A stretch of 64,000 nt of DNA, taken from positions 1-64,000 of the IMG/VR virus record IMGVR_UViG_3300045454_000117; one strand, given 5' to 3'. The translations under genes were made by a program, and so were the position numbers. The stretch is from a virus. The notes under the pieces are model-generated. The model made no database searches and was not told the origin of the DNA. It worked only from the letters and a program-made list of their open reading frames with translations. Of the stretch, positions 1 to 63,538 are shown in pieces; position 1 is the first letter of the stretch; each line of letters begins with the position of its first letter.

Positions 1-1176
1 TTAGCTCGCATTTCCAAGGCTTTGCTCCTTCTGTGTGTCTAACCCCGGGACAGGGTTAGACATTTCCCATTCCACCAACCGCTTGATCGCCGCGTCCGCG
101 AGCTTCGCCTGGTTGGCCGTCGCGGTGTAGCGGGCGACCTCGTCGTCCTTGCTGTGGCCGCTGACCGACTTCATGCTCTTGTTGGGCATTTCGAGCTCCG
201 CCATGCGGCGCATCGTCGCCTTCCGCAGGCCGTGCGCGGTGCATTGGGGAAGACCGGCCGCATCGCACTGCTCGCGGAACCAGCCCCCGAACCCCTTCAC
301 CGAGAAGGGCTTCCCCCACTCGGTCATGATGAAGCAAAGGTGATCCGAAGGCGGCATCGCGGCGATCGCGTTTGCCAATGGCGCGGCGATCGGCAGGGTC
401 AGGGTCTTGCCGGTCTTTGTCTGTCGGATGACGAATTTTCCGCCACGGACATGCTGGCGGCCGAGGTGGATTGCGTCGATCTTCCGCTGATCGGTCCAGA
501 GCATCAGCTCCATGGCGAGACGCTGCTTGGTGCCCAGCGGCCAGCGCGCGCGGTACGCCTGGATATCTTCCTCGGTCCACGCATAGAACCCGGTTGAACG
601 CTCCCCCGCCGGCACCTTGACCTGCTCGGATTGCGCGGCCGGGTTGGTGGCCATCAGCTTGGTCTTGATCGCGAAGTCGAACAGCCTGACCAGCTCCTTC
701 CGAAGCTTCTTTGCCGCCTCGATGCCGCCCTCCCAGCGGTTCGTTTCCTCGTTCTTGAACTTGACCTTCCGTGCGGCGACCATCGCGTCGATGTGCTCGA
801 ACGTGATGCCAGCGACGGGCCATGTCGTGCGACCGTCAAAGAAGCCTCTATCCAAGACCGACTTGACCTTGATCTGCGTCTGCTCTGTCGGCCCCAGGCG
901 CTCGGGCACCGAGTAATAGCGGTGCTGCAGATCGCCGGCGCTTCCGGGGACGATCCGCGCCTGGACGGCCTCGCGCGCAGCTTTCGACGGTGCGGCGGGA
1001 TCATTGAACCGGGCATACTCCTCGCGGAAAGCCTCGGTGCCGAGCGGTGCTGTGAAATGCCCACCGGGGAATCCGGCGCGGCGGAAGCGATACCGCCACT
1101 TTCCGTGCCGGTCGCGATAGCGCGTGACGTACTCGGGCAGGAAACGGTTCGATTTCAACTGGCGCTTGTTCGTCAT
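1..1176 (-). CDS. int: Tyrosine-type integrase
   Basis: Complete 391-aa site-specific recombinase that would integrate and excise the element. All catalytic residues of the tyrosine recombinase family are visible: R231, K254 in RQTKTGK, H315 and R318 in HGLRKA, H341 in GHS, and the nucleophile Y350 in VARYT. Residues 1-190 are the usual arm-binding and core-binding portion. The stop codon is the first three bases of the window. A 4-bp overlap joins its start to the small gene upstream. The final ~20 residues follow the catalytic domain and are encoded by DNA holding a 10-bp inverted repeat (36-62). Position and orientation fit the left end of a prophage. The attachment site itself is not resolved. 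Confidence 0.95.
   Translation of the reverse strand: MTNKRQLKSNRFLPEYVTRYRDRHGKWRYRFRRAGFPGGHFTAPLGTEAFREEYARFNDPAAPSKAAREAVQARIVPGSAGDLQHRYYSVPERLGPTEQTQIKVKSVLDRGFFDGRTTWPVAGITFEHIDAMVAARKVKFKNEETNRWEGGIEAAKKLRKELVRLFDFAIKTKLMATNPAAQSEQVKVPAGERSTGFYAWTEEDIQAYRARWPLGTKQRLAMELMLWTDQRKIDAIHLGRQHVRGGKFVIRQTKTGKTLTLPIAAPLANAIAAMPPSDHLCFIMTEWGKPFSVKGFGGWFREQCDAAGLPQCTAHGLRKATMRRMAELEMPNKSMKSVSGHSKDDEVARYTATANQAKLADAAIKRLVEWEMSNPVPGLDTQKEQSLGNAS
36..62. repeat. Inverted repeat TGTCTAACCC-N7-GGGTTAGACA
   Basis: A perfect 10-bp inverted repeat (36-45 and 53-62) separated by 7 bp lies inside the 3' coding end of the integrase. The right arm continues as GGTTAGACATTTC (54-66), and this 13-mer recurs in direct orientation at 59945-59957. 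It could be a recombinase or regulator binding site, or chance. Confidence 0.5.
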
Positions 1177-21304: not shown

Positions 21305-21441
21305 AACCGTCTGTTCGGTAGCTGGACGGGCCAAGCCTCGGAGACCACGCCCAACCGGGTCATGTCTTCGAGCTTGGCGTCCTCTTCCGGCGTCCATGGG
21401 AGCGGGGTCGGCCGCTGCTTCCATGCCTTCGGTTCTCTCAC
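21247..21441 (-). CDS. Small SANT/GcrA-like protein, 64 aa
   Basis: A 64-aa protein (LPWTPEEDAKLEDMTRLGVVSEAWPVQLPNRRFYEIVERRLELG). The WTPEED..L..M...G.....W...LP.R....I..R pattern resembles Myb/SANT or GcrA-type HTH. It overlaps the ParB gene upstream by 4 bp and is probably its co-expressed partner. Confidence 0.6.
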   Translation of the reverse strand: MREPKAWKQRPTPLPWTPEEDAKLEDMTRLGVVSEAWPVQLPNRRFYEIVERRLELGLRCAPLL

Positions 21442-27728: not shown

Positions 27729-28229
27729 ATGGCGCGCGGACCGATCGCCGACTGGGCGAAGCTCAAGCTCGAATATGTCCAGACCCGCATCACGATTGCC
27801 GAACTCGCGGAAAAGCATGGGCTGAAACCGGAGACCGTCAAGAAGCAGGCGGAGCGCCATCGCTGGGGCATGGAGCGGCTCAAGTTCGAGCAGATCGCGC
27901 TCGCCGAGGCTGCCGAGGCGGCGAGCAAGGAGCGCATCACCGAGCTGCTCCAGTTCAATCGCGATGATCTCCGCGTCGCGAAGGCGATCCGCGCGCGCTG
28001 CGCCCGGCGTCTTGCCGTGGTCGGCGAGGACATCCCGGCGAGCGAGCTGCGGTTGATCGCGTCTGCAGCTGAGGCTGCTCAACGCATCGGGCGGCTCGCG
28101 CTGGGTGCCACGACTGAGAACGTCGGCCATCCCGGTTTCCCGACGCCCGATCAGGGTGTGGGCGATGGTGCCGAGGTCTCGACGGCGGACTATCTTAAAG
28201 CGCGGGCGCGGGCCATCGAAGATTTCTGA
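27729..28229 (+). CDS. terS: Terminase small subunit
   Basis: A 166-aa protein with N-terminal HTH (VQTRITIAELAEKHGLKPETVKKQAERHRW) and helical oligomerisation region, immediately upstream of the large terminase with a TGATG overlap. It would recognise the packaging site. Length and layout fit small terminases. Confidence 0.85.
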   Translation: MARGPIADWAKLKLEYVQTRITIAELAEKHGLKPETVKKQAERHRWGMERLKFEQIALAEAAEAASKERITELLQFNRDDLRVAKAIRARCARRLAVVGEDIPASELRLIASAAEAAQRIGRLALGATTENVGHPGFPTPDQGVGDGAEVSTADYLKARARAIEDF

Positions 28230-29668
28230 TGTCAGAGAGCGCCGAGGCCTATGCGCTGGCGGTGAAGCTCGAAGCGCGTGCGGACCTGTATTTCTTCTCG
28301 CGCTACATGTTCAAGTCGATGCGCGGCTATCGGTGGCTGCACAACTGGCACCACCGGACCATCTGCGATGCGCTGATGCGGGTCTATCGGGGCGAATGTA
28401 AACGCCTCATCATCAACATCCCGCCGCGGTATTCGAAGACCGAGCTGGCGGTGGTCAACTTCATCGCCTGGGCGCTCGGGCTCAACCCCGACGCTGAGTT
28501 CATCCACACCAGCTATTCCGACAAGCTCTCCGTCAACAACGCCGCCAACGCGAAGCGGATCGTCGAGCACGAGGCATACCGGGGCATCTTCCCGGAGGTG
28601 CAGCTGCGCCGGGACAGCAACGCGAAGGGCGAGTGGCGCACGACCGCCGGCGGCGTCGTCTATGCCCAAGGCGAAGGCGGCACTATTACTGGCTTCGGTG
28701 CAGGCAAGCTGCGCCCCGGCTTCGGTGGTGCCATCATCATCGACGACATCCACAAGGCGGCCGAGGCGAAGTCGGACGTGATCCGCGAGGGCGTGATCGA
28801 GTGGTTCAAGAACACGCTCGAATCGCGCGTCAACTCGCCTGACACCCCGATCATCGTCATCGGGCAGCGGTTGCACGAGCGGGATTTGCCGGGCTGGCTG
28901 CTCAATGGCGGCAACGGCGAAGAGTGGGAACTGCTCAAGATTCCCGCGATCCAGCCTGACGGCACCGCCCTGTGGCCCGCGAAACACGACATCGCGACGC
29001 TCCGCCGCATGGAGGAGAAGAAGCCCTACGAGTTCGCGGGCCAGTACGCACAGGAGCCAGCCCCGAAGGAGGGCGGGCTGTTCAAGAAGCACTGGTTCAA
29101 GGTGGTCGACGCCGCCCCCGCAGGTGGCACCTGGGTCCGCAAGTGGGACCTCGCCGGCACCGAGGAGGGCGCGACAGGCGACCCGGACTGGACCGTGGGG
29201 TGCTTGATGTCGAAGTGCCCAGACGGGTTCTTCTGGGTCCGCGATATAATCCGATTCCGCGGCTCGCCGCACGAGGTCGAGCAAGCGGTCCAGAACACAG
29301 CCACGCTCGACGGCAAGAACGTCGCGATCCACCTCAATCAGGATCCGGCGCAGGCGGGCAAGGCACAGGCGAAGGCGTTCACCCGCATGCTCGCGGGCTG
29401 GATCGTCAAGGCCGAAGTCGAGAGCGGGTCGAAGGAGACCCGGGCGGCGCCATTCTCGGCCCAATGCGAGGCCGGCAACGTCCGTCTGGTGAAAGCGCCC
29501 TGGAACGAGGGCTTCATCACCGAACTCTGCACGTTCCCGAACGCGGCGAAAGACGATCAGGTCGACGCCGCCTCGGGTGCCTTCAACTATCTCGCACCCG
29601 GTAGCGGCCTCGAAGGCTGGCTGTCCTGGGCGGCGGAGACCACCACTTCCGCCGAGCAATCGGCATAG
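28229..29668 (+). CDS. terL: Terminase large subunit
   Basis: A 479-aa DNA-packaging motor. The ATPase domain carries a Walker A-type PPRYSKTE near residues 60-67 and GGAIIIDDIH as Walker B with its catalytic acid. The RNase H-like nuclease region includes WDLAGTEEGATGDPDWTVG, HLNQDPAQAGKAQA and the C-terminal KDDQVDAASGAF. It cleaves and translocates phage DNA into the prohead. Length is typical of this family. Confidence 0.95.
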   Translation: MSESAEAYALAVKLEARADLYFFSRYMFKSMRGYRWLHNWHHRTICDALMRVYRGECKRLIINIPPRYSKTELAVVNFIAWALGLNPDAEFIHTSYSDKLSVNNAANAKRIVEHEAYRGIFPEVQLRRDSNAKGEWRTTAGGVVYAQGEGGTITGFGAGKLRPGFGGAIIIDDIHKAAEAKSDVIREGVIEWFKNTLESRVNSPDTPIIVIGQRLHERDLPGWLLNGGNGEEWELLKIPAIQPDGTALWPAKHDIATLRRMEEKKPYEFAGQYAQEPAPKEGGLFKKHWFKVVDAAPAGGTWVRKWDLAGTEEGATGDPDWTVGCLMSKCPDGFFWVRDIIRFRGSPHEVEQAVQNTATLDGKNVAIHLNQDPAQAGKAQAKAFTRMLAGWIVKAEVESGSKETRAAPFSAQCEAGNVRLVKAPWNEGFITELCTFPNAAKDDQVDAASGAFNYLAPGSGLEGWLSWAAETTTSAEQSA

Positions 29669-50555: not shown

Positions 50556-51196
50556 GCGGCAAGATGACCGGGTTCAACGCGAACCCTGCGCCGCCTGCGC
50601 CATCCCGGCCGGGCAAGAAAACCGGGCTGGCCGCGATTGTTGCCGCCATGCTCGCCGGGGTCATCGCCGTTGAGGGCGGCTATGTGAACCACCCCAGCGA
50701 TCCAGGCGGCGAGACCAACATGGGCATCACCAAAAAGGTGGCGGTCCAGAACGGGTACCGGGGGCCGATGCGGACACTCCCGCGCGAGGTTGCCGAGAAC
50801 ATCTATTACCGGCGCTACCTGGTCGACCCCGGCTATGAGCCGCTGATCGCCTTGGATGCCGCAGTGACCGAGGAGCTGTTCGACACCACCGTCAACATGG
50901 GCCCGGCGCGACCGTCGCGCTGGTTCCAGCAGGGCACCAACGCCCTGTGCGGCACCCGCCTTGTTGCCGACGGCAAGGTCGGCCCGTCGACGATCGCCGC
51001 CTACAAGAGCTGTCAGGACCGGCGTGGCGCCGCGCAGCTCTGCGTCGCCATGCTCGCCCACCTCGATGGTGCGCAGCGCGGCGAATACGACCGGCTCGTC
51101 CGGATCAACCCCAAGCTCCGCGCCTTCCACCGGGGCTGGATCGCGCACCGCATCGGCAACGTCGATCGAGCCAAATGCGGGAGGGCGGTCCGATGA
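50552..51196 (+). CDS. GH108 N-acetylmuramidase endolysin
   Basis: A 214-aa protein. Catalytic Glu41 lies in VEGGYVNHPSDPGGETNMGIT, the GH108 signature, followed by a peptidoglycan-binding-like C-terminal part (VADGKVGPSTIAAY). Residues ~25-40 (GLAAIVAAMLAGVIAV) are hydrophobic and rich in Ala/Gly, as in signal-arrest-release endolysins, but they directly abut the active-site Glu, so this may only be the first catalytic helix. It degrades peptidoglycan at lysis. Confidence 0.9.
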   Translation: MSGKMTGFNANPAPPAPSRPGKKTGLAAIVAAMLAGVIAVEGGYVNHPSDPGGETNMGITKKVAVQNGYRGPMRTLPREVAENIYYRRYLVDPGYEPLIALDAAVTEELFDTTVNMGPARPSRWFQQGTNALCGTRLVADGKVGPSTIAAYKSCQDRRGAAQLCVAMLAHLDGAQRGEYDRLVRINPKLRAFHRGWIAHRIGNVDRAKCGRAVR

Positions 51197-52925: not shown

Positions 52926-53102
52926 TTATGGCAGGTCGGAACGCGTCAGCGGCGCGGGAATCCTAGCTTTTCTGCCGTTTTTCGCCTGTGCATGAGAACG
53001 ACGCCCGAACGCGCGATTTTTTCCGTTGGGCCTTTCGTCCACAGGATAAACAGGCGATCGGCGCGGCTTGGACGCGATTTCGAACGTATACCGCTTAGCC
53101 AT
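52926..53102 (-). CDS. Possible small basic protein, 58 aa
   Basis: A 58-aa, strongly basic protein (MAKRYTFEIASKPRRSPVYPVDERPNG...) 5 bp after the preceding gene. No clear ribosome-binding site. Last gene of the PRTRC-containing operon if real. Confidence 0.45.
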   Translation of the reverse strand: MAKRYTFEIASKPRRSPVYPVDERPNGKNRAFGRRSHAQAKNGRKARIPAPLTRSDLP

Positions 53103-53107
53103 GCGCG

Positions 53108-53314
53108 CTAAATCCGGTCCGTTCGCTGCATGTCGATCTCCCATGCGCCACTCTCGGTCGAGCGAGTCGACCAGCACCACCCCGCCCCGCAATGGGCGTG
53201 GGCCTGCATCTCAAGATGGTCGACAAAGGGCATGTCCCGGTCTTCTCGATAGCTGGCTTTTGCCGCCTCGATGACGATGTGCCGAAGCTCGGCCGCCGCG
53301 CGATCGTCAGACAT
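53108..53314 (-). CDS. Hypothetical protein, 68 aa
   Basis: A 68-aa protein (MSDDRAAAELRHIVIEAAKASYREDRDMPFVDHLEMQAHAHCGAGWCW...) with a helical first half and Cys/His/Trp-rich second half. Start overlaps the methyltransferase-like stop by 8 bp. Function unknown. Confidence 0.6.
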   Translation of the reverse strand: MSDDRAAAELRHIVIEAAKASYREDRDMPFVDHLEMQAHAHCGAGWCWSTRSTESGAWEIDMQRTDRI

Positions 53315-53972
53315 CGCCCCCGGCCCATTCGCGGACACGCTTCTTCGCGGCGGCGTAGCGCCCCCGCACGGCGGCGAAGCTTCCCTCCCGATACAGCTTG
53401 CGGCTGATCGTCGGCCCGGTCCTATCGCTGTTCCAAACCACGCACGCGAAGTCGATCGTCCCACCCGAGAACGCGGCATCGCCCAGGTCCTCGATCTTGC
53501 TGCCCGGCGGCATGCTCGGCCGATCGGAGAACACGGCCTCGAACGCCGGCGGGAACTCATCGTAGAGGTGCGCGCGGGTCAGCCCTGCCAAGAAGCGCAG
53601 CTGCACGATCAGCGCGACAGGGCCAAGATCGAGCTGCAGCGCGCGGATCGCCCATTCCAAGGCAACGTTGAAGGGCGGGTTGCTGGCGATGATGAGCCGC
53701 CCAGGCCCAGGCCGCCGAGGCGCGTCGCGGAAGAAGTCGAGCGTCCCTACCGCCCCTCCCCTCTGCACCAAGTCGGTCCCATAGGCATGGTGCCCAGCCC
53801 GCTGCGCCGCGCGCACGATCGCGCCGCGACCGGCGGCCGGATCCCAGACCGGCAAGCTCTCCTGGAGCATCCCGCTCCGAAAGAGCAGGTCCGCCGCCCA
53901 GTCGGGCTCGCAATACCATTCGTCCTCGGCACGATCATAGGCGACCCGGCGGTTGTTGTTCGGTGCGTTCAT
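53307..53972 (-). CDS. DNA methyltransferase-like protein
   Basis: A 221-aa protein with motif I DPAAGRGAIV (residues 44-53), GTDL (65-68) and the catalytic-type SNPPF (97-101) of N6-adenine or N4-cytosine methyltransferases. Start at 53972 forms an ATGA overlap with the Zn-ribbon gene. Compact compared with typical enzymes; a target-recognition domain is not evident. It is translationally linked to the PRTRC genes, so it may belong to the cassette. Confidence 0.8.
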   Translation of the reverse strand: MNAPNNNRRVAYDRAEDEWYCEPDWAADLLFRSGMLQESLPVWDPAAGRGAIVRAAQRAGHHAYGTDLVQRGGAVGTLDFFRDAPRRPGPGRLIIASNPPFNVALEWAIRALQLDLGPVALIVQLRFLAGLTRAHLYDEFPPAFEAVFSDRPSMPPGSKIEDLGDAAFSGGTIDFACVVWNSDRTGPTISRKLYREGSFAAVRGRYAAAKKRVREWAGGDV

Positions 53973-54145
53973 CTGAATGTGAATCCTTCGATATCGGCGG
54001 CGGTGACGCCGCTCCGGGCGCTGTGCCGGCTTAGCCAGGCGTGCATGGTGGCTTTGCAGTCCCGGCACTTCGGCACCGGCTCCAGCGCCTCGGAGTCGGT
54101 CTGGAACCCGCAGAGGCAGGCCCAGGCGTAGATGCGCTGCTTCAT
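53969..54145 (-). CDS. Zinc-ribbon protein, 58 aa
   Basis: A 58-aa protein with two Cys pairs: WACLCGFQ (C10, C12) and PKCRDCKA (C27, C30), a zinc-ribbon spacing. It fits exactly between ThiF and the methyltransferase-like gene with ATGA overlaps at both ends, so it is translated with the cassette. Function unknown; an adaptor or DNA-binding role is possible. Confidence 0.7.
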   Translation of the reverse strand: MKQRIYAWACLCGFQTDSEALEPVPKCRDCKATMHAWLSRHSARSGVTAADIEGFTFR

Positions 54146-54909
54146 GCCGCGGGCGCGTCGCCCTTTGGCAGTGCGATCGGCACGACTTGCCCGCTCGCCA
54201 GATTGATGAAGCCGCCTGCGCTCCCGATCGATCCTCGCCCGAGCAGCTCGTAGAGCAGGGCAAGCGCGTGGCTGGAAACGACGCGGTTCACGAAGAGGGA
54301 TTGCCGCTCCAGCGCCTCCGCCACCGAACAGGACGGCGCGTCATCCTCAGCGATGGTCTCGTCTGCGAGCTCGGGAAATGCTTCCAGCACCGTGGGCAGG
54401 CGAATTGCGTCCCGCGCGATCTGCTTCGGCGTCCCGATGATAAACTGTCCATCGGTCGCGCGATTGCCGAGGTCCAGCCAGTAGGAGGGAGGCCGGTTGC
54501 TCTCGGCGATCGCCGCCCCGAGCGCGCGCCGCGCCGCCGCAGTGTCGACGCAGGTTATCACGATGTCTGCTCCATCGACGCCAGCCGCGTCCGGCGCCCG
54601 CCCGTGCACGGCCTTCCAGTCGAGACCATGCGCGATGTTGATGCGTTCCACCAGCGTGCGCGCCTTGGAGTTGCCGACATCGCAGCGATAGAAGGGCTGG
54701 CGACCAAGATTGGCGACCGTGACGATATCGTCGTCGACCACCGTGACCCTGAGCGATCGTGAAGAGATTTCGCGCAGCGCCGCATCGAGGCTGGCGAGGC
54801 CCATCAGCATCTGCGCGCCGTTCCCGCCGCACCCGACCAGCAACACCTTGATCGGCCGGTTCTCGAAGATCGGGGGCAGGTAGTGGCGCGGTCGCGCGTC
54901 ATGCGTCAT
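54142..54909 (-). CDS. PRTRC system ThiF-family (E1-like) protein
   Basis: A 255-aa adenylation-type enzyme. Rossmann motif LLVGCGGNGAQ (residues 24-33), acidic strand VTVVDDD (56-61), NLGRQ (67-71) with the E1-type Arg, K83, and D122 after ITCVD. Cys194 in APSCSVAEAL is a candidate catalytic or thioester Cys. Start at 54909 has GGAG upstream. E1-like proteins activate ubiquitin-like C termini with ATP; here the likely substrate is the PRTRC C protein, an inference from operon content. Confidence 0.92.
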   Translation of the reverse strand: MTHDARPRHYLPPIFENRPIKVLLVGCGGNGAQMLMGLASLDAALREISSRSLRVTVVDDDIVTVANLGRQPFYRCDVGNSKARTLVERINIAHGLDWKAVHGRAPDAAGVDGADIVITCVDTAAARRALGAAIAESNRPPSYWLDLGNRATDGQFIIGTPKQIARDAIRLPTVLEAFPELADETIAEDDAPSCSVAEALERQSLFVNRVVSSHALALLYELLGRGSIGSAGGFINLASGQVVPIALPKGDAPAA

Positions 54910-55558
54910 GATCTTCTCCAGCAAAAGGGCTGCGGGGCATCGGAAGGAACATCCCCCCGGCACAGAGGCGGGAGGCGATCTCGGCGCCCTCGGGATCATC
55001 GAGTCGCCCGACGACCAGCGCGATCTTCGTGGAATGCGCGTCGTCAACATCGTCGGTGGAGCTGAAGAATGCGCGCCCTCGACCGTGGCTATGGATGTCG
55101 CAGACGACGTACCAGCCCGGGCCGACCGCTGGGGGGCGATAGACCAACCGTGATGGCGTGGCCTCGACCGTGTCAGGGAAGTGGACGTCGAATTCTCCAG
55201 ACACCGCATTCCAAAGGACGAATGCCGCCGCCTCATTCGGTAGCGCCGTTATGAAGTGGGCGAGGATGCGATCGAGCAGGTCGCCGGGAATTAAACCGCA
55301 CCGAAGCATCGCCCTGGGTCGCCCGACGCTGCCATACGGGACATAGCCCGGCAGGGGCGGAGCCATCAGCGCATCGACCTCGAGCCACGGTCGCCGGACG
55401 ACCAGCATGACACCGTCGCGCCCGACAATTACCCCCTCGCCCGCCGGCGCGCTGCGCAATTCCTCAATGGCCGGCGACCGACCGACTTGTGGAATCGGAT
55501 AGCAGGGCACCGCGGTCAGGATCGCTGCGGCGGTTGGATCATCGGCGAGAATTTTCAT
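54899..55558 (-). CDS. PRTRC system protein A (JAB/Mov34 JAMM peptidase-like)
   Basis: A 219-aa protein with a complete JAMM metal site: E109 (LPNEAAAFV), H156-x-H158 (IHSHGR), S166 and D169 (FFSSTDD), giving the H-x-H-x7-S-x2-D spacing of JAB/MPN+ deubiquitinase-type zinc peptidases. The N-terminal ~90 residues form an additional domain. It could process or remove a ubiquitin-like modifier. It overlaps ThiF by 11 bp and protein B by 4 bp. Confidence 0.92.
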   Translation of the reverse strand: MKILADDPTAAAILTAVPCYPIPQVGRSPAIEELRSAPAGEGVIVGRDGVMLVVRRPWLEVDALMAPPLPGYVPYGSVGRPRAMLRCGLIPGDLLDRILAHFITALPNEAAAFVLWNAVSGEFDVHFPDTVEATPSRLVYRPPAVGPGWYVVCDIHSHGRGRAFFSSTDDVDDAHSTKIALVVGRLDDPEGAEIASRLCAGGMFLPMPRSPFAGEDHDA

Positions 55559-56364
55559 GCTCGGGAACTCCTTGCGATCAGGTCGCGCAGCGTCAGTGGC
55601 TCAGCCTTCTTGTCAGCTGGCCGCTGGCGATCGTTGGATGGAATGAATGGCCTCAGCCGGGACACCGGAAAGCGGCGGGCGCCGCGCGCTGCGAGATCGT
55701 CCCACAGCCTGACCAACCCGCCCTTCCCCTTGATGGTCCGCTCCTGACCGGGGTTTGGATGCGTCGACCAGGAGTCGAACACCGCATCCTCGAACTCCTG
55801 CATGGACCCGACGTCGAGCGTCTTCGGGCGCGCGATGTTTCCCCAACAGAGCTGCCCCGTGACAAAGACGTTCAGCACCGGAGAGCACAGGATCGGGGTG
55901 TCGGCCCTCGGCCGTTCACTCGCGGGCAGCGCATAGACGCCGAGCCCAGATCGCGTGGCGACGAAGAGATGCGCGGGGTATGGGACGGGAACCGCCGTGC
56001 GCTCGGTGAGACGCTTCAAATCCTTCGGGGGATTCGACAGTGCGAAGTAGGCCGTGCGGACCTGCGCCGGAATCCACCACACCAGCATGTCGGGGTGCGC
56101 GACCAGCACATTGTCCGGGAGGATTTCCGGCACCGCGTTGCGTTCCAGCGCCTCTGCCCATTTTTGCAGGTGCGCGCGCGTCAGCGGGGCTCCCGCTGCA
56201 ATTACGGGTCCACCATCCACCTCCGCGACGCCGTGGATGCTCGCGAACGCCGTCGCCCCGGCGCGCGGTGCGGCCCCTGACGTGGCACCGCTCGTGTAGA
56301 GCAGAATGGCACCACTGAGCACCAGCCCGCCGGGTGTCGCTTCGAATTCGCACGAGTGTTTCAT
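55555..56364 (-). CDS. PRTRC system protein B (E2-like)
   Basis: A 269-aa protein. Its central portion (PYPAHLFVATRSGLGVYALP, then SPVLNVFVTGQLCWGNI) resembles the E2 conjugating fold, with Cys173 placed like the catalytic Cys in the E2 signature (H-P-N-x-x-x-x-G-x-I-C). The start at 56364 gives an ATGA overlap with protein F. With ThiF, the JAMM protein and the C protein it completes a ubiquitin-like conjugation gene set. Activity is not shown for this family, to my knowledge. Confidence 0.88.
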   Translation of the reverse strand: MKHSCEFEATPGGLVLSGAILLYTSGATSGAAPRAGATAFASIHGVAEVDGGPVIAAGAPLTRAHLQKWAEALERNAVPEILPDNVLVAHPDMLVWWIPAQVRTAYFALSNPPKDLKRLTERTAVPVPYPAHLFVATRSGLGVYALPASERPRADTPILCSPVLNVFVTGQLCWGNIARPKTLDVGSMQEFEDAVFDSWSTHPNPGQERTIKGKGGLVRLWDDLAARGARRFPVSRLRPFIPSNDRQRPADKKAEPLTLRDLIARSSRA

Positions 56365-57467
56365 GCCCGCGCCTCCGGCTTGGTGGGGTCGAAGTCGATC
56401 AGCTCCTGCGCCGCCAGCAGCACGTCGAGCCCCAGCCGGAAGGATTCGAACCAAGTGTCCAGAACGGCCGCCTCGGGCAGTTCGCACAGGCCTGCGACGT
56501 CCATGAAGCCCATCTCCATGCCGTGTCGGCCGACCTCGTCCAGCTCGCGCTGGAAGTGATCGAACGGCACGAGGGTCAGCGAGGGCAGGTGCGAGGCTTC
56601 ATCGAGATGAGGAAAATAGTCGACTGCCCGGCCAAAGTTCTCGACGAGCCAGCCGGTGCGCGCGGCGCGGTGCGCCTCGAACGCGGTCTTCAGCCGCCGC
56701 AACAGCGATCGGAGCGCCTTGGGCATTGCCTTCAGCGGATCGGGCCGTGCGATCATGAAGTCCGGCCGCTTCGCGTTCATGGTCGACGGAAGCATCTCCT
56801 CCGCTTCATCGACCTCAACGCCGTAGCTTTCGATCAGATGTGCACGGGCTTCCTCATCGGTAGTGGCACCGTCCCAGTGGTAGGCCGAGAACTCCTCGAA
56901 CATGTCCTCATAGTTGAAGAGCGTCAGCACGCTGCCCAACGTTCCCGTTAGCGCCTTATACGCCGCGGCCCGCCAACCGACCGGAGCGACCGATCCGAAC
57001 AGCGTGTCCGACAGGACATTGGTCTTTTCGATCCAGCCGAGCTCGAGCTGTCCGATATCGTCGCAGATCACTGCGATCGCCGGCGGGATCTCGCCGTCAC
57101 CGACCAGCACCACCACCCGCAGGTTTGTCAGCTTCACTGGGGCGAGCAGCTCCATGACTGCTGCGCGGAACCCATCCTCGATGTGCCTGCGTGCCTCCGC
57201 GCGCGTGAACAGGCGCTCCGGCTCGCGCGAGGCAAGCCACTGGCCGATAATCCGGTGGTGATGTGCCAGCGGTGCGTCGAAGGCGCGCGGGACATCCGGC
57301 GAGATCTTCGCCGCCCGCCCAGCAAGGTCACCCGAGAGGCGCAAGCCTGAGGCCGGGGGGCGGCTGGAGCGGCTCGCCGCGCGGGGGCGCGAGGCAAACG
57401 CTCGCATGGAGGGCTTGCTCGGCCTCGCTGCAGACGGGGTCAGATGCAATTGCTGTGTCGCCATCAT
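56361..57467 (-). CDS. PRTRC system protein F
   Basis: A 368-aa protein of the PRTRC F type, with no catalytic motif recognised. Landmarks are HHRIIGQWLASREPERLFTRAEARRHIEDGFRAAVMELL, TNLRVVVLVGDGEIPPAIAVICDDI, FGSVAPVGWRAAAYKALTGTLGSVLTLFNYEDMFEEFSAYHWDG and DYFPHLDEASHL. Mostly alpha/beta followed by helices. The N-terminal ~45 residues are Arg/Ser/Pro-rich and overlap a competing frame (57328-57537), so the exact start is uncertain. Role in the cassette unknown. Confidence 0.85.
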   Translation of the reverse strand: MMATQQLHLTPSAARPSKPSMRAFASRPRAASRSSRPPASGLRLSGDLAGRAAKISPDVPRAFDAPLAHHHRIIGQWLASREPERLFTRAEARRHIEDGFRAAVMELLAPVKLTNLRVVVLVGDGEIPPAIAVICDDIGQLELGWIEKTNVLSDTLFGSVAPVGWRAAAYKALTGTLGSVLTLFNYEDMFEEFSAYHWDGATTDEEARAHLIESYGVEVDEAEEMLPSTMNAKRPDFMIARPDPLKAMPKALRSLLRRLKTAFEAHRAARTGWLVENFGRAVDYFPHLDEASHLPSLTLVPFDHFQRELDEVGRHGMEMGFMDVAGLCELPEAAVLDTWFESFRLGLDVLLAAQELIDFDPTKPEARA

Positions 57468-57537
57468 CGTTTTCGATCCATTCGAGGAGCGTTTTGCGCG
57501 GGGGTGGCGCGATCGCCGGGCGTGTCGATCGCGCCAC
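57328..57537 (-). CDS. Possible small protein overlapping PRTRC F start, 69 aa
   Basis: GTG start 2 nt after the PRTRC C stop. The frame (RKTLLEWIENDDGDTAIASDPVCSEAEQALHAS...) looks more protein-like than the N terminus of protein F encoded by the same DNA. Either this is a real extra gene with protein F starting further in, or the resemblance is fortuitous. Confidence 0.4.
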   Translation of the reverse strand: MARSTRPAIAPPPRKTLLEWIENDDGDTAIASDPVCSEAEQALHASVCLAPPRGEPLQPPPGLRLAPLG

Positions 57538-57539
57538 GG

Positions 57540-57746
57540 TCAGCCCTTGGTGCCGACCGCGCGACGGTATTCGGTGACCAGCACGCCATTGCTGACACCG
57601 GCATCGACCGTCTCGGCGTTGAGAATCGCGGGGTAGAGCTGCGCGTGATAAGCGCGCAGCGCCTGGGGATCGTTGGCGATGTGCGCCGGGACCGGGAGGT
57701 CGATCCCGTCATAGCGATACACGCGCTCCAGTTGATTGATCTGCAT
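57540..57746 (-). CDS. PRTRC system protein C (ubiquitin-like)
   Basis: A 68-aa protein, MQINQLERVYRYDG at the start and TEYRRAVGTKG at the end, with AGGAG upstream. Length and beta-grasp-like pattern (strand, strand, helix DPQALRAYHAQLYP, strands) match PRTRC C. The flexible Gly-containing C terminus is what an E1-like enzyme would activate if this is the modifier; unlike ubiquitin it ends in a single Gly. Conjugation is an inference. Confidence 0.88.
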   Translation of the reverse strand: MQINQLERVYRYDGIDLPVPAHIANDPQALRAYHAQLYPAILNAETVDAGVSNGVLVTEYRRAVGTKG

Positions 57747-57786
57747 GGGAAGCTCCTGAATTGGGTTAAGGTCGGCGGGCTAGGGA

Positions 57787-58203
57787 TCACCAAAGGCTGG
57801 CCGGTTCCCCCGGCTTCGCATCAGCGGGCGGAGTGCTTGCGGGCGGCGGGGCCGCAGCCGCGGCGCTCTTGGCCGGTGAGGGTGCGGGCTTCGCCTTCGC
57901 GGCCGCGCTCGTCTTTGCCGCTTCGGCGGAGGCGCGCTGTTCCGCGAGCTGATCCGCGAGAGCCTTGCGGGTCGCGATCAGCTGGCCCAGCGCGCCCTCC
58001 TCGCCGCGCGCGAGCTCGGCATCAATCTCGGCGGCGCTCGCGGTGATCGAGATGGGACGGGCTTCGTCGGTCCCAAGGGCGTGCTTGGCCCCTTCGGCCT
58101 TCCTCGGGATGATGGTCAGCGTGACAGTCTCGTCAGGTCCGGCCGCGAGGTCGAACCCGAGGGAATAGCGGGAGAGCAGCGGTAGCAGGCTGGTAATCAG
58201 CAT
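57787..58203 (-). CDS. PRTRC system protein E
   Basis: A 138-aa protein: N-terminal beta domain (MLITSLLPLLSRYSLGFDLAAGPDETVTLTIIPRKAE...), helix (EGALGQLIATRKALADQLAEQRA) and a long Ala/Pro/Lys-rich tail. It fits PRTRC E in position between ParB and C and in layout. Function unknown. Confidence 0.85.
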   Translation of the reverse strand: MLITSLLPLLSRYSLGFDLAAGPDETVTLTIIPRKAEGAKHALGTDEARPISITASAAEIDAELARGEEGALGQLIATRKALADQLAEQRASAEAAKTSAAAKAKPAPSPAKSAAAAAPPPASTPPADAKPGEPASLW

Positions 58204-58265
58204 GGTGGCAGTCCTTCGTCTTGGTGGAGTTGGGTGCGCATCAGGCGCTCGGCGCGGCGTCCGGC

Positions 58266-59861
58266 TTAGGCAGAGGGCTCGCTAGTCGGCGGAGGGCCGT
58301 ACTTGCCATCGAGCGCCATCGCGCTGGGAACGCGGCCCGCCCAGGCGAAGCCCGTGGCATTCAGCATCCCTGCGATGATCGCGTCGCGCTTTGCCTTGAG
58401 CAGGTTCGCAAAGGGCTTCGTGCCCATGTGGGCGACCAGGCCGCATTCCTGTGCGACGAATTTCAGCTCGTCGTTGGTGCAGCGCTCCAGGAACTCTTGG
58501 TCGACCTGCCAGCTGGCCCGGAGATCGACGTCGAACTCGAACGCGAGAACCGTGACGATATCGAAGCTGGGTACGTCCTTCGCGTAGGCGGCACCGATCG
58601 CCGCGAGCACATCGCTAGCCCGCTTGCTCGGCAATTCGCGAAGCTCGGCCAGCTTTGCATTGTAGTCGCGTTTCTCGAAGCCTTCGCCGACGAGAAGCGC
58701 CGCGCGCGCCGTCAGCGTCTCGGGTCTGATCTGCGAGAGAGTCCCCGACATCGCGGCGGTGAGAACCGTCACCAGTCCGTGTTCCGGGTTGGCCACAAGG
58801 GCCCGAGCGACCGCGCTACGCCATGCCGCTTCCCGAACGTCCGCGAAGCGCGCGGCGATGGACTTCGCTGTGACGGCCACCTTCGGGGCTGCTGCGGCCG
58901 GAGCGGGCTTGGTCGGCGCAGCGGGTGCCGGAGTGGGTGCCGAGGCCGGTTGCCCACTCGGCACAATCGCATCGGCGGTAGCCAGCGTTTCCGCCTCGGG
59001 GGCAGAATTCGGCTCGATTGGTGCCGCCTCCTCCGCTGGTACCGGCGCTTCCGCCGCCTTCGCCGCGGCGGCGCGCTCCTCTTCCTCGCGTCGGGCAGCA
59101 TCCGCCGCCTCCAGCTTCAGCTGGAAACAGCCGCCATTGGTGCAATGCCCGTCATCGACATGGGTACCGAACAGTGCGCCCTGGACGGCGGAGTTGAACG
59201 GGCAGGCCGCGCATTCCGCCTTATCGAAGGTCGCGTTCGCGAGATCTTGCATCACGCGCATCAGCAGCTCGCGCGTCTTCCCGACATCGAGGTTCGCCGA
59301 CAGGATCGTATCGAGCGCCTTGTCCTGCTTGTCCCCAGGGACTGCTGCCAGCAGTTCGGCATGGCCGACCTTGATCCGGCGCTCGTCGAGAGCGGTCTTC
59401 ACCGTCGCCGACAGGTTGGCGAGAGCAAGCCGTCGTTCGAGCTTGGCGGCTGACCAGCCGAGGCGCGCGGCGGCCTCCGCCTTGTCCCCCTGACACGCTG
59501 CGAGAACGCGCACCGCGGCATCGGCCTGTTCGGTCTCCGATGCATCATCGCGGACATCGTTTTCGTCGATCGCCGCCTCCAATGCCTCCTGATCGGTGAG
59601 GTCGCGCACGATGACCGGGATTTCGCCGTCCGCCCCGAAAGCTTCCAGCGCCGCGCGATATCGCCGCCCGCCGGCGACGATCTTAAACTCGGCCGAGTCA
59701 ACGATGGGACGCACCAGCACGGGCTGGAGCAATCCCCTCAGCTTCAGCGAAGCGACCAGCTCGGCGTGCTTTGCCGGATCGAAGTACCGACGCGGGTTGT
59801 CGGCTTCGCGCAGCTGGGCGAGGGGCAGCGTGGTCGGGCGGATTGGCTCTGGCGCAATCAT
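58266..59861 (-). CDS. PRTRC system ParB-family protein
   Basis: A 531-aa protein. ParB/Srx N-terminal domain (LPLAQLREADNPRRYFDPAKHAELVASLKLRGLLQPVLVRP...FKIVAGGRRYRAALEAFG) with the nucleotide-binding-type GGRRYRA box at 64-70. Then a KorB-like HTH (GDKAEAAARLGWSAAKLERRLALANL), a Cys cluster (CAACPFNS...HCTNGGCF, ~218-245) that may bind zinc, an Ala/Pro linker and a helical C-terminal domain. It is first in the cassette. No ParA and no actin-like PRTRC D are seen in the window. Confidence 0.93.
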   Translation of the reverse strand: MIAPEPIRPTTLPLAQLREADNPRRYFDPAKHAELVASLKLRGLLQPVLVRPIVDSAEFKIVAGGRRYRAALEAFGADGEIPVIVRDLTDQEALEAAIDENDVRDDASETEQADAAVRVLAACQGDKAEAAARLGWSAAKLERRLALANLSATVKTALDERRIKVGHAELLAAVPGDKQDKALDTILSANLDVGKTRELLMRVMQDLANATFDKAECAACPFNSAVQGALFGTHVDDGHCTNGGCFQLKLEAADAARREEEERAAAAKAAEAPVPAEEAAPIEPNSAPEAETLATADAIVPSGQPASAPTPAPAAPTKPAPAAAAPKVAVTAKSIAARFADVREAAWRSAVARALVANPEHGLVTVLTAAMSGTLSQIRPETLTARAALLVGEGFEKRDYNAKLAELRELPSKRASDVLAAIGAAYAKDVPSFDIVTVLAFEFDVDLRASWQVDQEFLERCTNDELKFVAQECGLVAHMGTKPFANLLKAKRDAIIAGMLNATGFAWAGRVPSAMALDGKYGPPPTSEPSA

Positions 59862-60292
59862 GCGGCCACCGCCCGCGCGGACGCGCCAAAGTGGTTAGAC
59901 GTTGAGGCCCGGACGCCGCGGGTTTCCGTGGGGCCTTTTCGGTCGGTTAGACATTTCAGACCCGCAGAAAACGGTAGATTTGGAAGCCCGGCTCGGGCCT
60001 CCAGCCTTTTGACGATGAGCAGCAATACCTACGCGGCGTGAGCAAATGAGTAGTTCGCGTTTAGATCGAGTGAACTGCTCCTGCGCCTCAGCAAGACGAT
60101 TTGACTGCAGTGGGGCTCAACTAAAAATATAGATTGGCAGTGGAGCTGCGCACTTGGCGATCGAATGGACATCCGCAGCGACTCGCTGAGTAGCGGCGGA
60201 TTGAGTGGCTCTTCGTTTGCCACTCCTGGAGCCCTGCCCTTTGCGACTTCCGCACTTGGGCGTTGATCATGTCGCGGCCGCAGCTTTGTGGG
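59862..60292. other. Regulatory gap upstream of PRTRC parB
   Basis: No convincing gene in 431 bp. It holds two GGTTAGAC boxes (59893-59900 and 59945-59952, 52 bp apart; GTCTAACC in the direction of parB transcription) and a GCCCGgctCGGGC hairpin (59985-59997). A lower-GC tract lies at ~60030-60200 that may contain the promoter. The second box is part of the 13-mer shared with the integrase end. Confidence 0.55.
59892..59957. repeat. GGTTAGAC direct repeats upstream of parB
   Basis: TGGTTAGAC (59892-59900) and GGTTAGACATTTC (59945-59957) lie in direct orientation 31-96 bp before the parB start. Candidates for ParB or regulator binding, or for an attachment core with the copy at 54-66. Confidence 0.45.
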
Positions 60293-61003
60293 TCAGCTAT
60301 CGGAGCCAAGCTCCGGCCAAGGCATCGCACACTCACTCAAGCCCGTGCGAAAAGAAAGGACCGTCGGACCCCAATCGGCGTCAACGTCGAACGCCTCGCC
60401 GATTCGATAGCCGCGGGCCGCAAACAGGTGGCTGTCCACCAGTTCATCGATGGGCCGATTGATACAGCCCGCCTTAAGCGTTTCGGGCAGTCGCCGATCT
60501 AGGATCAGCCAAGCAAGGCCGCCTTGGGTCGACATGTGACAGTTCCCGACCGTTGCGATCACCTCGACCGCCCGATCGACAACCCGGATGCCGGCGTATG
60601 CGAAGCCGGACGAACGTGGCCGTATGACGGCGATGGCCTGCGCCGGCGCGAGCCAATCCGCATGATAGTCATAGATCGGGTCTATGTCGCTAGCTGACCG
60701 GCCGAACGGTCCGCTCTCCTTCCGGACCGCGAGCAGCGCCTTCCCCGAATGGCGCCGCAACCATGCGGGGCCTGGACGCAACCCGTTCAGGGCATCGTGG
60801 AATGCGATCCCGGCTGTGGTCACGAAGTCGTAAGCGACAGGCGAGACATACCTGACGCAAGCCTGCAGATGCGTCCGAAAACAGCGGGTGAACGCAACGT
60901 CGGCCAGCCCGCTGAGGGCTCGGACCTGTTCACGCGCACGGCGGTCAGCGTTTTGCAAGTCGCGACTTATGCGGGCCCGGTGATGGCGGTTGCGATGTAG
61001 CAC
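60293..61003 (-). CDS. Hypothetical protein, 236 aa
   Basis: A protein of up to 236 aa. The C-terminal ~190 residues look like genuine protein (PAWLRRHSGKALLAVRKESGPFGRSASDIDPIYDYHADWLAPAQAIAVI, NCHMSTQGGLAWLILDRRLPETLKAGCINRPIDELVDSH). The first ~35 residues are Arg-rich and the true start may be internal. It ends 431 bp upstream of parB. Function unknown. Confidence 0.65.
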   Translation of the reverse strand: MLHRNRHHRARISRDLQNADRRAREQVRALSGLADVAFTRCFRTHLQACVRYVSPVAYDFVTTAGIAFHDALNGLRPGPAWLRRHSGKALLAVRKESGPFGRSASDIDPIYDYHADWLAPAQAIAVIRPRSSGFAYAGIRVVDRAVEVIATVGNCHMSTQGGLAWLILDRRLPETLKAGCINRPIDELVDSHLFAARGYRIGEAFDVDADWGPTVLSFRTGLSECAMPWPELGSDS

Positions 61004-61009
61004 ACCCGT

Positions 61010-61825
61010 TCACAGCAGACGGCGCGCGCGGCCGGGTTTCACGCCGCCATCGGGATCGTCGGGCGCGGCCATGACCATCGCGAGCAGGTGCTGGGTCAGC
61101 ATCAGACCGCCGCGCCTGTATGCCATGTCGCCCCACGTCTCCCACCGATCGAGGCGATGCGCCAGCCAGACATGAAAGCGGTCGCGCGCGGAATTGTCCG
61201 AGAAGGACTGCATCCACAGGGTGCGGCGAAGCGGCACGGCCTGACCGAGACCATCGCCGATCAGCGCGATCGCAGGCTTCCGCCACAAGTCGCGCCTCTC
61301 AAAACGGAAGGGCATCTTCGCGGCGAGCGCCTCCACCCGGTCGAGCCAAGCGGCCGTTTCGGCATCCGAGGCTTTGGACGGCGCGAGCGTCTGGATCGAT
61401 TCGCTTCCGACCGGCATGCCGCGCACCTGGGACGGACGTGTCGCGGCAATCATCACGAGCGCCGCGTGTCCCTCTGCACTGATCCCGGTCCCGAACGGCG
61501 GGTCGCCGCCGGTCAGCCCCTGCGAATACACCCAGGTCCGATAGAAGCGCTCGAAGTCGTGCTCGCCCATGAACAGGTCATGCGCCTGCTCAGCGACGTG
61601 AACCACGCGGCGGCTGATCGCCGCGAGGTGGGCCATCATGCGCTCCAGTCCCTCTTCCATGGCAGACGATTTGGGCATGCCCAACCGGCCGATCCAGAAC
61701 GCCTCGCGAACCGACGTCCAGCGGCGCCCGTCCTCGTCGAGCAGGGTTGCGCCATGCGGCGAGCCATCGGTGTGCAGCCAATAACCCCACGGCAGCGCCG
61801 GATTGCGGATGTCCTCATACCTCAT
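61010..61825 (-). CDS. Hypothetical protein, 271 aa
   Basis: A 271-aa protein (MRYEDIRNPALPWGYWLHTDGSPHGATLLDEDGRRWTSVREAFWIGRLG...), largely helical with many Trp and Arg. Its start overlaps the upstream gene by 4 bp and its stop is 6 bp from the next, so one operon. I do not recognise the family. Its company (exonuclease, PRTRC) suggests plasmid or integrative-element accessory genes. Confidence 0.7.
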   Translation of the reverse strand: MRYEDIRNPALPWGYWLHTDGSPHGATLLDEDGRRWTSVREAFWIGRLGMPKSSAMEEGLERMMAHLAAISRRVVHVAEQAHDLFMGEHDFERFYRTWVYSQGLTGGDPPFGTGISAEGHAALVMIAATRPSQVRGMPVGSESIQTLAPSKASDAETAAWLDRVEALAAKMPFRFERRDLWRKPAIALIGDGLGQAVPLRRTLWMQSFSDNSARDRFHVWLAHRLDRWETWGDMAYRRGGLMLTQHLLAMVMAAPDDPDGGVKPGRARRLL

Positions 61826-62538
61826 CGGCGCTGCACGGGCTGATATTCGGCAAGGCCGACCGGCGGACGATCGCCCTTGAGCTCGGGCATCGGCAGCCCT
61901 TCGGCGATGGCATGGAGCTGAGCGGCCAGGTTGGTCGTCTCGCGAACGACATAGCGCTCATCTCGATAGACGCGACCGTTCTCGAGACCGAGCGGCGCAA
62001 CGTGCTGGGGGGTCGAGGGAATGAGGTCATAGGGCTTGTCGCACGAGAAGCCGAACCACCAGAGTTGCTCCGGCAGCGTCGCCACCGCGACCATCGTCCT
62101 TGCATCGAACGGCGGATCAATGGGCGTCGACGAACGGCCGGCCGCGCGCCGCGGCACGCGGACGTGGCACACCGAGATCTCCTGCGGTTCGTATTCCTCG
62201 CACGGCGACGCATAGTCGACACCGCCGTGCACGACGATGGGCGGGTCGTGGGGCAGCGCCTCCTCGCCTACGCCCGCAAGCGGGTGGTCGGGACCCACAC
62301 CGACAAACCCGCACAGGGCACCATTGGTATCGCGGCGCATGATGCAAGGCAGCCCGGTGTCGCGGTCGATCCACGACACCTTGTCGGGCTCGGCGCTCCA
62401 CGGGCCATCGCCGGACGGGTGCCTGCCGCGGACATGGTACACCTCCACCGGCATGACGTCCGTGCCGGCCAGCGGCCGGTGCTGCACGGCCGTCGCGACG
62501 GGGACCAGCGCCTTGCTGGGCTTCGGCTTCTTCGTCAT
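61822..62538 (-). CDS. Hypothetical protein, 238 aa
   Basis: A 238-aa protein; start at 62538 has GAAGGAGAAGG upstream. Basic N terminus, then a beta-rich body (GLPCIMRRDTNGALCGFVGVGPDHPLAG, VVHGGVDYASPCEEYEPQEISVCHVRVP, QLWWFGFSCDKPYDLIPST). Conserved-looking, family not recognised. Same operon as its neighbours. Confidence 0.7.
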   Translation of the reverse strand: MTKKPKPSKALVPVATAVQHRPLAGTDVMPVEVYHVRGRHPSGDGPWSAEPDKVSWIDRDTGLPCIMRRDTNGALCGFVGVGPDHPLAGVGEEALPHDPPIVVHGGVDYASPCEEYEPQEISVCHVRVPRRAAGRSSTPIDPPFDARTMVAVATLPEQLWWFGFSCDKPYDLIPSTPQHVAPLGLENGRVYRDERYVVRETTNLAAQLHAIAEGLPMPELKGDRPPVGLAEYQPVQRR

Positions 62539-62560
62539 CACCTTCTCCTTCGAGTCTGCT

Positions 62561-63469
62561 TCACGATTGCGGATTGCGCGGCATTGGCGCGTAGCGCTCA
62601 CGCCAGGTCACGCGCTCGATACGCGGACCCAGCGCCTTCGGGTTGGCATCGACCGCGTAGACCTGGGCGGCGAGCCACCATTCCTCCTCGGCGCGCCCGC
62701 TGTCCGACACCTCGCGCCACCAGGTCTTGCTCATGCCGTCCCATCGGTAACCTCGGGCGCGAAGGCGATCCTTCAGCTCGAAGGCCGCCCCGACCGCCCA
62801 GATGCGCCAGCTCGGCGCGCAGGCCCGCTCGAGCATCTCGCCAAGCGCGGTCTCACCCGGCCCGAAGTCGTGGCCGAGCAACGCGATCACGGCATCGACG
62901 TCGTCGGTTGCGCGGTGCGCGCCGTGATAGAAGCCGACCTGCGCCAGCAGCCAGCCAAGCGACCGGCCATCGAAGCCCCTCCCCCGCCAGTCGATGTCGT
63001 TGCACGAGCAGGCCCACGCCAGGTTCTCGATTCCGGCGATCCGACGCTCGAACTTCCGGCGGTCGAACACAGCGTTGTGCGCGCAGACGAAGTCAGCTGA
63101 CATCAGCAACCGACGCACCGCGTCCTCGTCGATCGACTGGCCCTTCAGCGCCTCATCGGTGAGGCCGGTCAGGCGGACGATGTCGTCGGGCAGTGGCGAC
63201 CCGGGATCCTCCAGCCAGGAATACGCCCGGTCGATCTTGACGATGACGCCATCGGGGTCGTGCCGGAAGCGTCGCAACGCGAGTTCGACGATCACGTCGT
63301 CGTCCCCGATCCCCGTGGTCTCGCAGTCCACCACGACCCCGATGCCGGTATCGACCTTTCCGCCAATGCCGGTGAGCCCTTCGCGGATGTCGAGTCGGCG
63401 CAGGATGCGCACGTCGTCAGCCGAATCGATGGCGCACAGCACCTCGGGGCCGAGCGTCTCGTCCCGCAT
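62561..63469 (-). CDS. DnaQ-like DEDDh 3'-5' exonuclease
   Basis: A 302-aa protein. Exonuclease residues D48 and E50 in VVDCETTG, D136 in AHNAVFDRRKF, H185 and D190 in HRATDDVDA form a complete DEDDh site of the DNA polymerase III epsilon family. A C-terminal ~80-residue domain (AFELKDRLRARGYRWDGMSKTWWREV) resembles small DNA/RNA-binding add-ons of plasmid-borne exonucleases. Start at 63469 follows GGAGGCG. Likely a stand-alone proofreading or repair nuclease. Confidence 0.88.
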   Translation of the reverse strand: MRDETLGPEVLCAIDSADDVRILRRLDIREGLTGIGGKVDTGIGVVVDCETTGIGDDDVIVELALRRFRHDPDGVIVKIDRAYSWLEDPGSPLPDDIVRLTGLTDEALKGQSIDEDAVRRLLMSADFVCAHNAVFDRRKFERRIAGIENLAWACSCNDIDWRGRGFDGRSLGWLLAQVGFYHGAHRATDDVDAVIALLGHDFGPGETALGEMLERACAPSWRIWAVGAAFELKDRLRARGYRWDGMSKTWWREVSDSGRAEEEWWLAAQVYAVDANPKALGPRIERVTWRERYAPMPRNPQS

Positions 63470-63538
63470 ATCGCCTCCATCATGTGTGATTGAGGCCCCG
63501 CCAGTCACCGGCGGAGCCGCGCGTCCCTGTGCGGCTTC

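What the first reader, a model, noticed from the sequence alone, without database searches (positions are those of the whole stretch)
52926..59861. Complete ubiquitin-like (PRTRC) cassette linked to a DNA methyltransferase-like gene and adjoining phage lysis genes
Seen: seven overlapping or tightly spaced minus-strand genes encode ParB, E, C, F, B, A and ThiF, followed without a break by a Zn-ribbon, a methyltransferase-like protein with SNPPF and two small proteins. Known: PRTRC (ParB-related, ThiF-related cassette) is a conserved plasmid and mobile-element gene set of unknown function, and bacterial E1/E2/JAB/Ubl gene sets exist in other operons, some of them anti-phage. Inference: the cassette conjugates protein C to a target, possibly ParB or a phage or host protein, and the methyltransferase-like protein and Zn-ribbon are functional members. 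Its presence a few kb from phage lysis genes suggests a phage-plasmid maintenance, exclusion or counter-defence role.
Basis: partly seen in the sequence, partly recalled or inferred. Interest (0 to 1): 0.85.

Follow-up and report, generated by a model that had tools for sequence, protein, structure and literature searches.

The report
Phage-borne bacterial ubiquitin-like tagging cassette
A virus of sphingomonad bacteria carries a complete set of genes for attaching and removing a small ubiquitin-like protein, a set that papers describe on bacterial plasmids but that also recurs, as its own old lineage, in many bacterial viruses; what it tags is unknown.

Summary
Minus-strand genes 54142-59861 are a full PRTRC cassette (ParB, E, C, F, B, A, ThiF), and all catalytic residues are present.

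The window is a temperate phage. Related cassettes lie inside other temperate phages, one of them a closed circle. At least 150 IMG/VR contigs encode the PRTRC ThiF, and one isolated Burkholderia phage carries six of the genes. In the tree, the window's copy falls within a phage lineage separate from plasmid copies.

The Zn-ribbon occurs in no other locus, and the methyltransferase is a common phage gene in 4 other phage records. Neither is a general cassette member, although both overlap the operon here. ParB is absent from 47 of 48 beta-type phage records and ParA from all 16 alpha-type phages tested, which argues against partition and against ParB as the essential target.

Best mechanism: E1 (ThiF) and E2 (B) conjugate C through its invariant GTKG tail, and JAB (A) removes or matures it. 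In most beta-phages C carries a swappable C-terminal extension just after GTKG. The target is unknown; competition between mobile elements is my leading guess.

The parts
58266..59861 (-). PRTRC ParB: ParB_N and HTH_ParB domains plus a Cys-rich segment (C217, C220, C240, C245)
   Evidence: TIGR03734 E=1e-117, PF02195 E=7e-19; column conservation
57787..58203 (-). PRTRC E, small protein of unknown role
   Evidence: TIGR03741 E=7e-20
57540..57746 (-). PRTRC C, ubiquitin-like modifier ending in RRAVGTKG
   Evidence: PF14454 Prok_Ub E=2e-18; tail 97-99% conserved in 122 non-redundant copies
57328..57537 (-). X, overlooked 69-aa conserved protein ending in PPPGLRLAPLG, 2 bp after C
   Evidence: Present in 88 of 96 alpha loci, 59 distinct sequences; invariant W20, H44, P60, P67, L68, G69; coding signature in its own frame
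56361..57467 (-). PRTRC F (the true start is probably downstream of about 57341, after X); mostly helical protein with no fold match
   Evidence: TIGR03742 sub-threshold E=4e-5; orthologues in 115 of 117 alpha-type loci; AF2 pLDDT 91; no PDB or BFVD match
55555..56364 (-). PRTRC B, E2-like; conserved C173 and H202
   Evidence: PF14460 Prok-E2_D E=1e-30, TIGR03737 E=8e-49; C173 and H202 at 99% of 134 copies
54899..55558 (-). PRTRC A, JAB/JAMM metalloprotease (E109, H156, H158, S166, D169)
   Evidence: PF14464 E=5e-14, TIGR03735 E=4e-42; JAMM residues 100% of 133 copies
54142..54909 (-). PRTRC ThiF, E1-like; GxGGxG loop, R70, K82, catalytic C194
   Evidence: TIGR03736 E=2e-79; residues 100% of 133 copies
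53969..54145 (-). Zn-ribbon-like 58-aa protein; local neighbour, not a general cassette member
   Evidence: No family match; no homologue in any other locus
53307..53972 (-). Phage-type DNA methyltransferase; local neighbour
   Evidence: phrog_799 E=5e-34; homologues in 31 phage records
53108..53314 (-). 68-aa ORF overlapping the methyltransferase
   Evidence: ORF only; no family match over cut-off; no homologue in the other loci
50564..51196 (+). Phage endolysin, convergent with the cassette
   Evidence: phrog_315 E=1e-39
1..1176 (-). Tyrosine integrase of the host phage
   Evidence: PF00589 E=2e-13, phrog_1 E=4e-27
28229..29668 (+). Terminase large subunit of the host phage
   Evidence: phrog_38 E=4e-107

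Best explanation
The feature is a complete PRTRC ubiquitin-like conjugation cassette that belongs to an integrating temperate phage of a sphingomonad, from a lineage of PRTRC cassettes that has long circulated in phages apart from plasmids. Proposed working: ThiF adenylates the C-terminal glycine of C (invariant tail RRAVGTKG) and takes it as a thioester on C194; it passes to C173 of the E2-like B, which, with F and perhaps E or X as adaptors, attaches C to target proteins; the JAB protease A removes it and, in beta-phages where C has an extension after GTKG, trims it first. Shown: gene content, order, residue conservation, purifying selection, phage location. Inferred: the enzyme steps. Speculative: the purpose. 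My leading guess (about 0.4) is interference with competing phages or other elements, in the manner of Bil, delivered as accessory cargo.
For: Families. Catalytic and tail residues conserved 97-100% in 122-134 non-redundant phage and plasmid copies; dN/dS 0-0.47 for all seven genes in close pairs of mostly phage copies, lowest for C. Phage location: G004 has 127-bp identical ends and holds the cassette beside its integrase; other records have it between integrase and structural or replication genes; 150 IMG/VR contigs encode the ThiF; an isolated Burkholderia phage has E, C, F, B, A and ThiF over NCBIfam cut-offs; portal genes in 23 of 49 records tested. Tree: the window's copy groups with phage copies (97-98%), plasmid copies mostly separate; plasmid-backbone genes in none of the viral loci. 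C-tail extensions start right after GTKG in most beta-phages and fall into several unrelated families, as expected if the tail is cut there. Published parallel: BilC trims BilA (PMC11354881).
Against: No conjugation has been tested in the papers I could search. The AF2 model of B did not match any E2 in the PDB significantly (the Cap2 E1-E2 protein appears only at E=1.8), so the E2 fold rests on Pfam and Iyer 2006. The right end of this record carries an ArsR-type gene (about 64.47-64.81 kb) that is probably host flank, and attR was not located, so for this one record the cassette's place inside the prophage rests on relatives (G004, G008, G014) and on the tree. The tree is a quick one, with several open forks between phage and plasmid groups. 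No direct evidence for a defence role: no PADLOC system matches.
Confidence: 0.75

Rival explanations
1. The cassette lies in host or plasmid flank beyond attR and was swept into the virus record; the link to lysis genes is accidental.
For: Integrase sits at the other end of the record; the last gene is an ArsR-type regulator; the cassette lies beyond g67, which is near the end of related phages.
Against: In the circular G004 the cassette lies next to the integrase, matching this order once circularised; G008 and G014 repeat lysis-then-cassette; the tree puts this copy among phage copies; no plasmid-backbone homologue is in the record.
Confidence: 0.13
2. Partition or stability system: ParB and the Ubl enzymes keep the element in the cell (phage-plasmid maintenance).
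For: A ParB gene heads the alpha cassettes; the PRTRC ParB is listed among putative partition systems of a Pseudomonas plasmid (PMC7466150).
Against: No ParA in 16 of 16 cassette phages against 5 of 5 cassette plasmids; ParB absent from 47 of 48 beta-type records; the phage has an integrase; no conserved parS-like palindrome upstream of ParB.
Confidence: 0.1
3. Counter-defence or host takeover: C is attached to a host immune or replication protein early in infection.
For: Beta-phage cassettes lie near integrase/excisionase genes, in the isolated phage at the end of a long same-strand gene run; some alpha cassettes lie in the early region.
Against: The same cassette is stable on large conjugative plasmids; no host target evidence.
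Confidence: 0.25
4. Epigenetic or restriction-type module: methyltransferase and Zn-ribbon are the effectors and the Ubl genes regulate them.
For: 4-bp overlaps join ThiF, Zn-ribbon and methyltransferase here; a divergent methyltransferase directly follows ThiF in two related phages.
Against: Zn-ribbon in 0 other loci and methyltransferase in 4 other records, none plasmid.
Confidence: 0.04

Closest known systems
PRTRC system (TIGR03734-03742) of plasmids; operon type 6d of Iyer et al. 2006 (PMC1779556)
   Same: Same gene families and order; Ubl with conserved C-terminal glycine, JAB with an extra N-terminal domain, E1, E2 with Cys and a His C-terminal to it, an alpha-helical protein
   Different: Here in a temperate phage, in a phage clade; extra conserved gene X is described; local Zn-ribbon and methyltransferase
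BilABCD (ISG15-like anti-phage system)
   Same: Ubl, E2, JAB and E1 in one operon; BilC trims BilA's C-terminus (PMC11354881)
   Different: One Ubl domain, not two; short single-domain ThiF rather than two-part BilD; adds E, F, X and ParB; no solved structure matches B by sequence, and A reaches BilC only at E=0.9
Type II CBASS Cap2/Cap3
   Same: E1/E2/JAB chemistry; Cap2 structure appears weakly in the fold search
   Different: E1 and E2 are separate proteins, there is a dedicated Ubl, no CD-NTase in the cassette
ParABS partition
   Same: ParB_N and HTH_ParB domains
   Different: No ParA in the phages; no parS-like site found

Membership tests
PRTRC system | ParB, E, C, F, B, A, ThiF family proteins in one cassette | tested here: met
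   Five of seven over NCBIfam cut-offs; C over Pfam Prok_Ub; F sub-threshold but syntenic and orthologous
PRTRC system | Intact E1, E2 and JAMM catalytic residues and Ubl terminal glycine | tested here: met
PRTRC system | Covalent conjugation of C | not testable with these tools
   Needs biochemistry
BilABCD | Two-domain ISG15-like Ubl | tested here: not met
   C is a single 68-aa Prok_Ub domain
BilABCD | E1 with inactive plus active adenylation domains | tested here: not met
   ThiF is 255 aa with one ThiF domain
Type II CBASS | CD-NTase and fused E2-E1 Cap2 | tested here: not met
   B and ThiF are separate proteins; no CD-NTase match among the eight proteins scanned
ParABS partition | ParA ATPase | tested here: not met
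   PF13614 absent in 16 of 16 phage records, present in 5 of 5 plasmids
ParABS partition | parS sites | tested here: inconclusive
   No shared palindrome within about 900 bp upstream of ParB in 55 loci; not searched further away
UBC (E2) fold | Structural match to a solved E2 | tested here: inconclusive
   Model pLDDT 90, order of elements compatible, but no significant PDB match
Temperate (integrating) phage | Integrase, terminase, portal, lysis genes | tested here: met

The most novel reading that the evidence does not exclude
PRTRC is a widespread virus-encoded ubiquitin-like modification system used in competition between mobile elements. Phages keep their own lineages, beta-phages swap C-terminal domains fused directly behind the GTKG cut site of the modifier, and the JAB enzyme releases the modifier from them.
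Probability: 0.35. Interest if true: 0.85.

Novelty: new variant of a known kind. Interest (0 to 1): 0.6.

Why it matters
PRTRC has been known from plasmids for years without a function. Showing that it is a recurrent phage cargo with separate phage lineages, that ParB is dispensable and that the modifier in many phages carries swappable tails makes the function testable: phage-host assays, a predicted cleavage site (after GTKG), a predicted catalytic pair (ThiF C194, B C173) and a defined minimal unit (E-C-F-B-A-ThiF). Ubiquitin-like conjugation encoded by phages, rather than against them, would widen the known range of this chemistry.

Tried and rejected
Homology of X to the C-terminal tails of beta-phage C proteins: looked plausible by eye, not supported by hhalign. 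Tail-tip fibre origin of one tail family: PF09327 weak (E=0.0014 in one, 0.06 in another, absent in others), no source found in held DNA. parS motif upstream of ParB: none. attL/attR direct repeat in the record: only 14-15-bp chance matches. Single-protein IMG/VR scan with B found nothing; an alignment was needed. Fold searches for F (PDB, BFVD) and B (PDB): no significant match. Terminase Pfam/PHROG scans found few because terminases are diverse; the portal family was more useful. g77 against plasmids and phages: no match. Plasmid flank for the right end: no plasmid-backbone homologues.

Full report
What is there. The window is 64.0 kb of a 64.8-kb IMG/VR virus record. It reads as a temperate phage: integrase at 1-1176(-), helicase-like gene and repressor region, terminase at 28.2 kb, portal at 29.7 kb, tail genes to about 49 kb, endolysin at 50.6 kb. 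Convergent with the lysis genes lies the cassette: ParB 58266-59861, E 57787-58203, C 57540-57746, F to 56361, B 55555-56364, A 54899-55558, ThiF 54142-54909, all minus strand. ParB, E, B, A and ThiF pass NCBIfam PRTRC cut-offs, C is a clear Prok_Ub (Pfam), and F is weak by profile but orthologous and syntenic.

A missed gene. Two bases after the stop of C begins a 69-aa ORF (57328-57537), here called X. It is present in 88 of 96 alpha-type loci (59 distinct sequences) with invariant W, H and a fixed C-terminus ending P-L-G. It overlaps the first part of the long F ORF, but variation across the 59 sequences is highest at X's third codon position (0.46 against 0.33 and 0.25; in the last 14 residues 0.54 against 0.25 and 0.11), so X is the coded frame and F starts later. 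PGAP lists it as a hypothetical protein in two plasmids.

Active-site check. In 122-134 non-redundant copies from phages, plasmids and genomes, ThiF C194, R70 and K82, JAB E109/H156/H158/S166/D169, B C173/H202 and the C tail RRAVGTKG are kept in 97-100%. This fits operon type 6d of Iyer et al. 2006, with an E2 that has its histidine C-terminal to the cysteine (PMC1779556). In close pairs of mostly phage copies dN/dS is 0-0.47, lowest for C. So the cascade is kept functional in phages. This is inference from conservation; no biochemistry was possible.

Is it phage or plasmid DNA? Searches of IMG/VR with an alignment of B found 25 contigs and with ThiF 150 (80 fetched). In G001, G010, G013, G018, G019, G012 and G016 the cassette lies between integrase and replication, structural or lysis genes. 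G004 has 127-bp identical ends, so it is a circle, with the cassette directly beside the integrase in the order this window would have when circularised. An isolated Burkholderia phage, BgVeeders33, carries E, C, F, B, A and ThiF over NCBIfam cut-offs. Portal genes are in 23 of 49 cassette records tested. No viral locus has homologues of the plasmid-backbone genes, whereas 45 of 78 genome loci have four or more. In a tree of ThiF+B+A the window's copy is sister to two phage copies (97 and 98% SH-aLRT) inside a mostly phage cluster; plasmid-type copies form another; four changes of element type are the fewest needed among alpha copies. The weak point is the right end of this record: its last gene is an ArsR-type regulator, probably host, and attR was not found.

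What belongs to the cassette. The Zn-ribbon has no homologue in any other locus. The methyltransferase has homologues in 4 other phage records (L012, L017, L018, L025), directly after ThiF in two closely related ones, and in no plasmid or genome locus. It matches phrog_799, and its BLAST relatives are phage methyltransferases plus a few on unrelated plasmids. Genes after ThiF differ from phage to phage. They are therefore local passengers, though 4-bp overlaps suggest co-translation here. ParB is also dispensable: 47 of 48 beta-type phage records have no ParB domain over cut-off. ParA is absent from 16 of 16 cassette phages and present on 5 of 5 cassette plasmids. The common core is E-C-F-B-A-ThiF.

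The modifier's tail. In alpha phages and plasmids C usually ends exactly at GTKG. In most beta-phage copies C continues for 57-100 residues right after GTKG, and these tails fall into several families with no detectable mutual similarity. The simplest reading is a precursor trimmed by A after GTKG, as BilC trims BilA (PMC11354881); alternatively the tails are fused partner domains. In beta records with an integrase match, the nearest one lies within 6 kb downstream of ThiF in 30 of 35.

How it most likely works. Shown: anatomy, conservation, location. Inferred: E1-E2 transfer of C through Gly68, with JAB removal or maturation. F is a confident but orphan fold (pLDDT 91, no PDB or BFVD match), a candidate adaptor. 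The B model (pLDDT 90) gave no significant E2 match, so the E2 call rests on Pfam and Iyer 2006. Purpose is open. I favour interference between mobile elements (about 0.4), because the cassette is cargo on phages and plasmids alike, and the known relative Bil tags phage tail fibres (Hor et al. 2024, as described in PMC11364771); counter-defence is next (0.25). PADLOC holds no model that matches beyond generic E1 and methyltransferase similarity.

Novelty. The gene families are known; of the 26 papers found to contain the string PRTRC none has a phage topic by title. Phage lineages of PRTRC, ParB-free phage cassettes, gene X and the tail extensions on the modifier are, as far as these sources show, undescribed. 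Papers in subscription journals were not searchable, so this is not proof of novelty.

Noticed in passing
21438-22319(-) and 25308-27285(+): Further ParB-like proteins in the same phage: a ParB_N plus HTH_ParB protein at 21438-22319, and two ParB-like ORFs before the terminase judged by eye, with no ParA detected in the record.
   Followed up: partly
22782-24323(-): DUF4942 fused to a methyltransferase domain, a second methyltransferase in this phage; homologues recur near PRTRC in several related phages.
   Followed up: partly
61010-63931(-): Three proteins without Pfam match plus a DnaQ-like exonuclease (62561-63508) between ParB and the record end; one (61822-62538) has no match in the phage or plasmid collections.
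   Followed up: partly
L033:2464-2811 (record about 64464-64811): ArsR-type regulator at the right end, probably host flank, suggesting attR lies shortly before it.
   Followed up: partly
L030:8264-8743, L203: Tail of beta-phage PRTRC C shows a weak, sub-threshold match to the phage tail-tip fibre family PF09327; could be chance.
   Followed up: partly
59862-61010: About 1.1 kb with little support for coding upstream of ParB; may hold the promoter or the ParB site.
   Followed up: no
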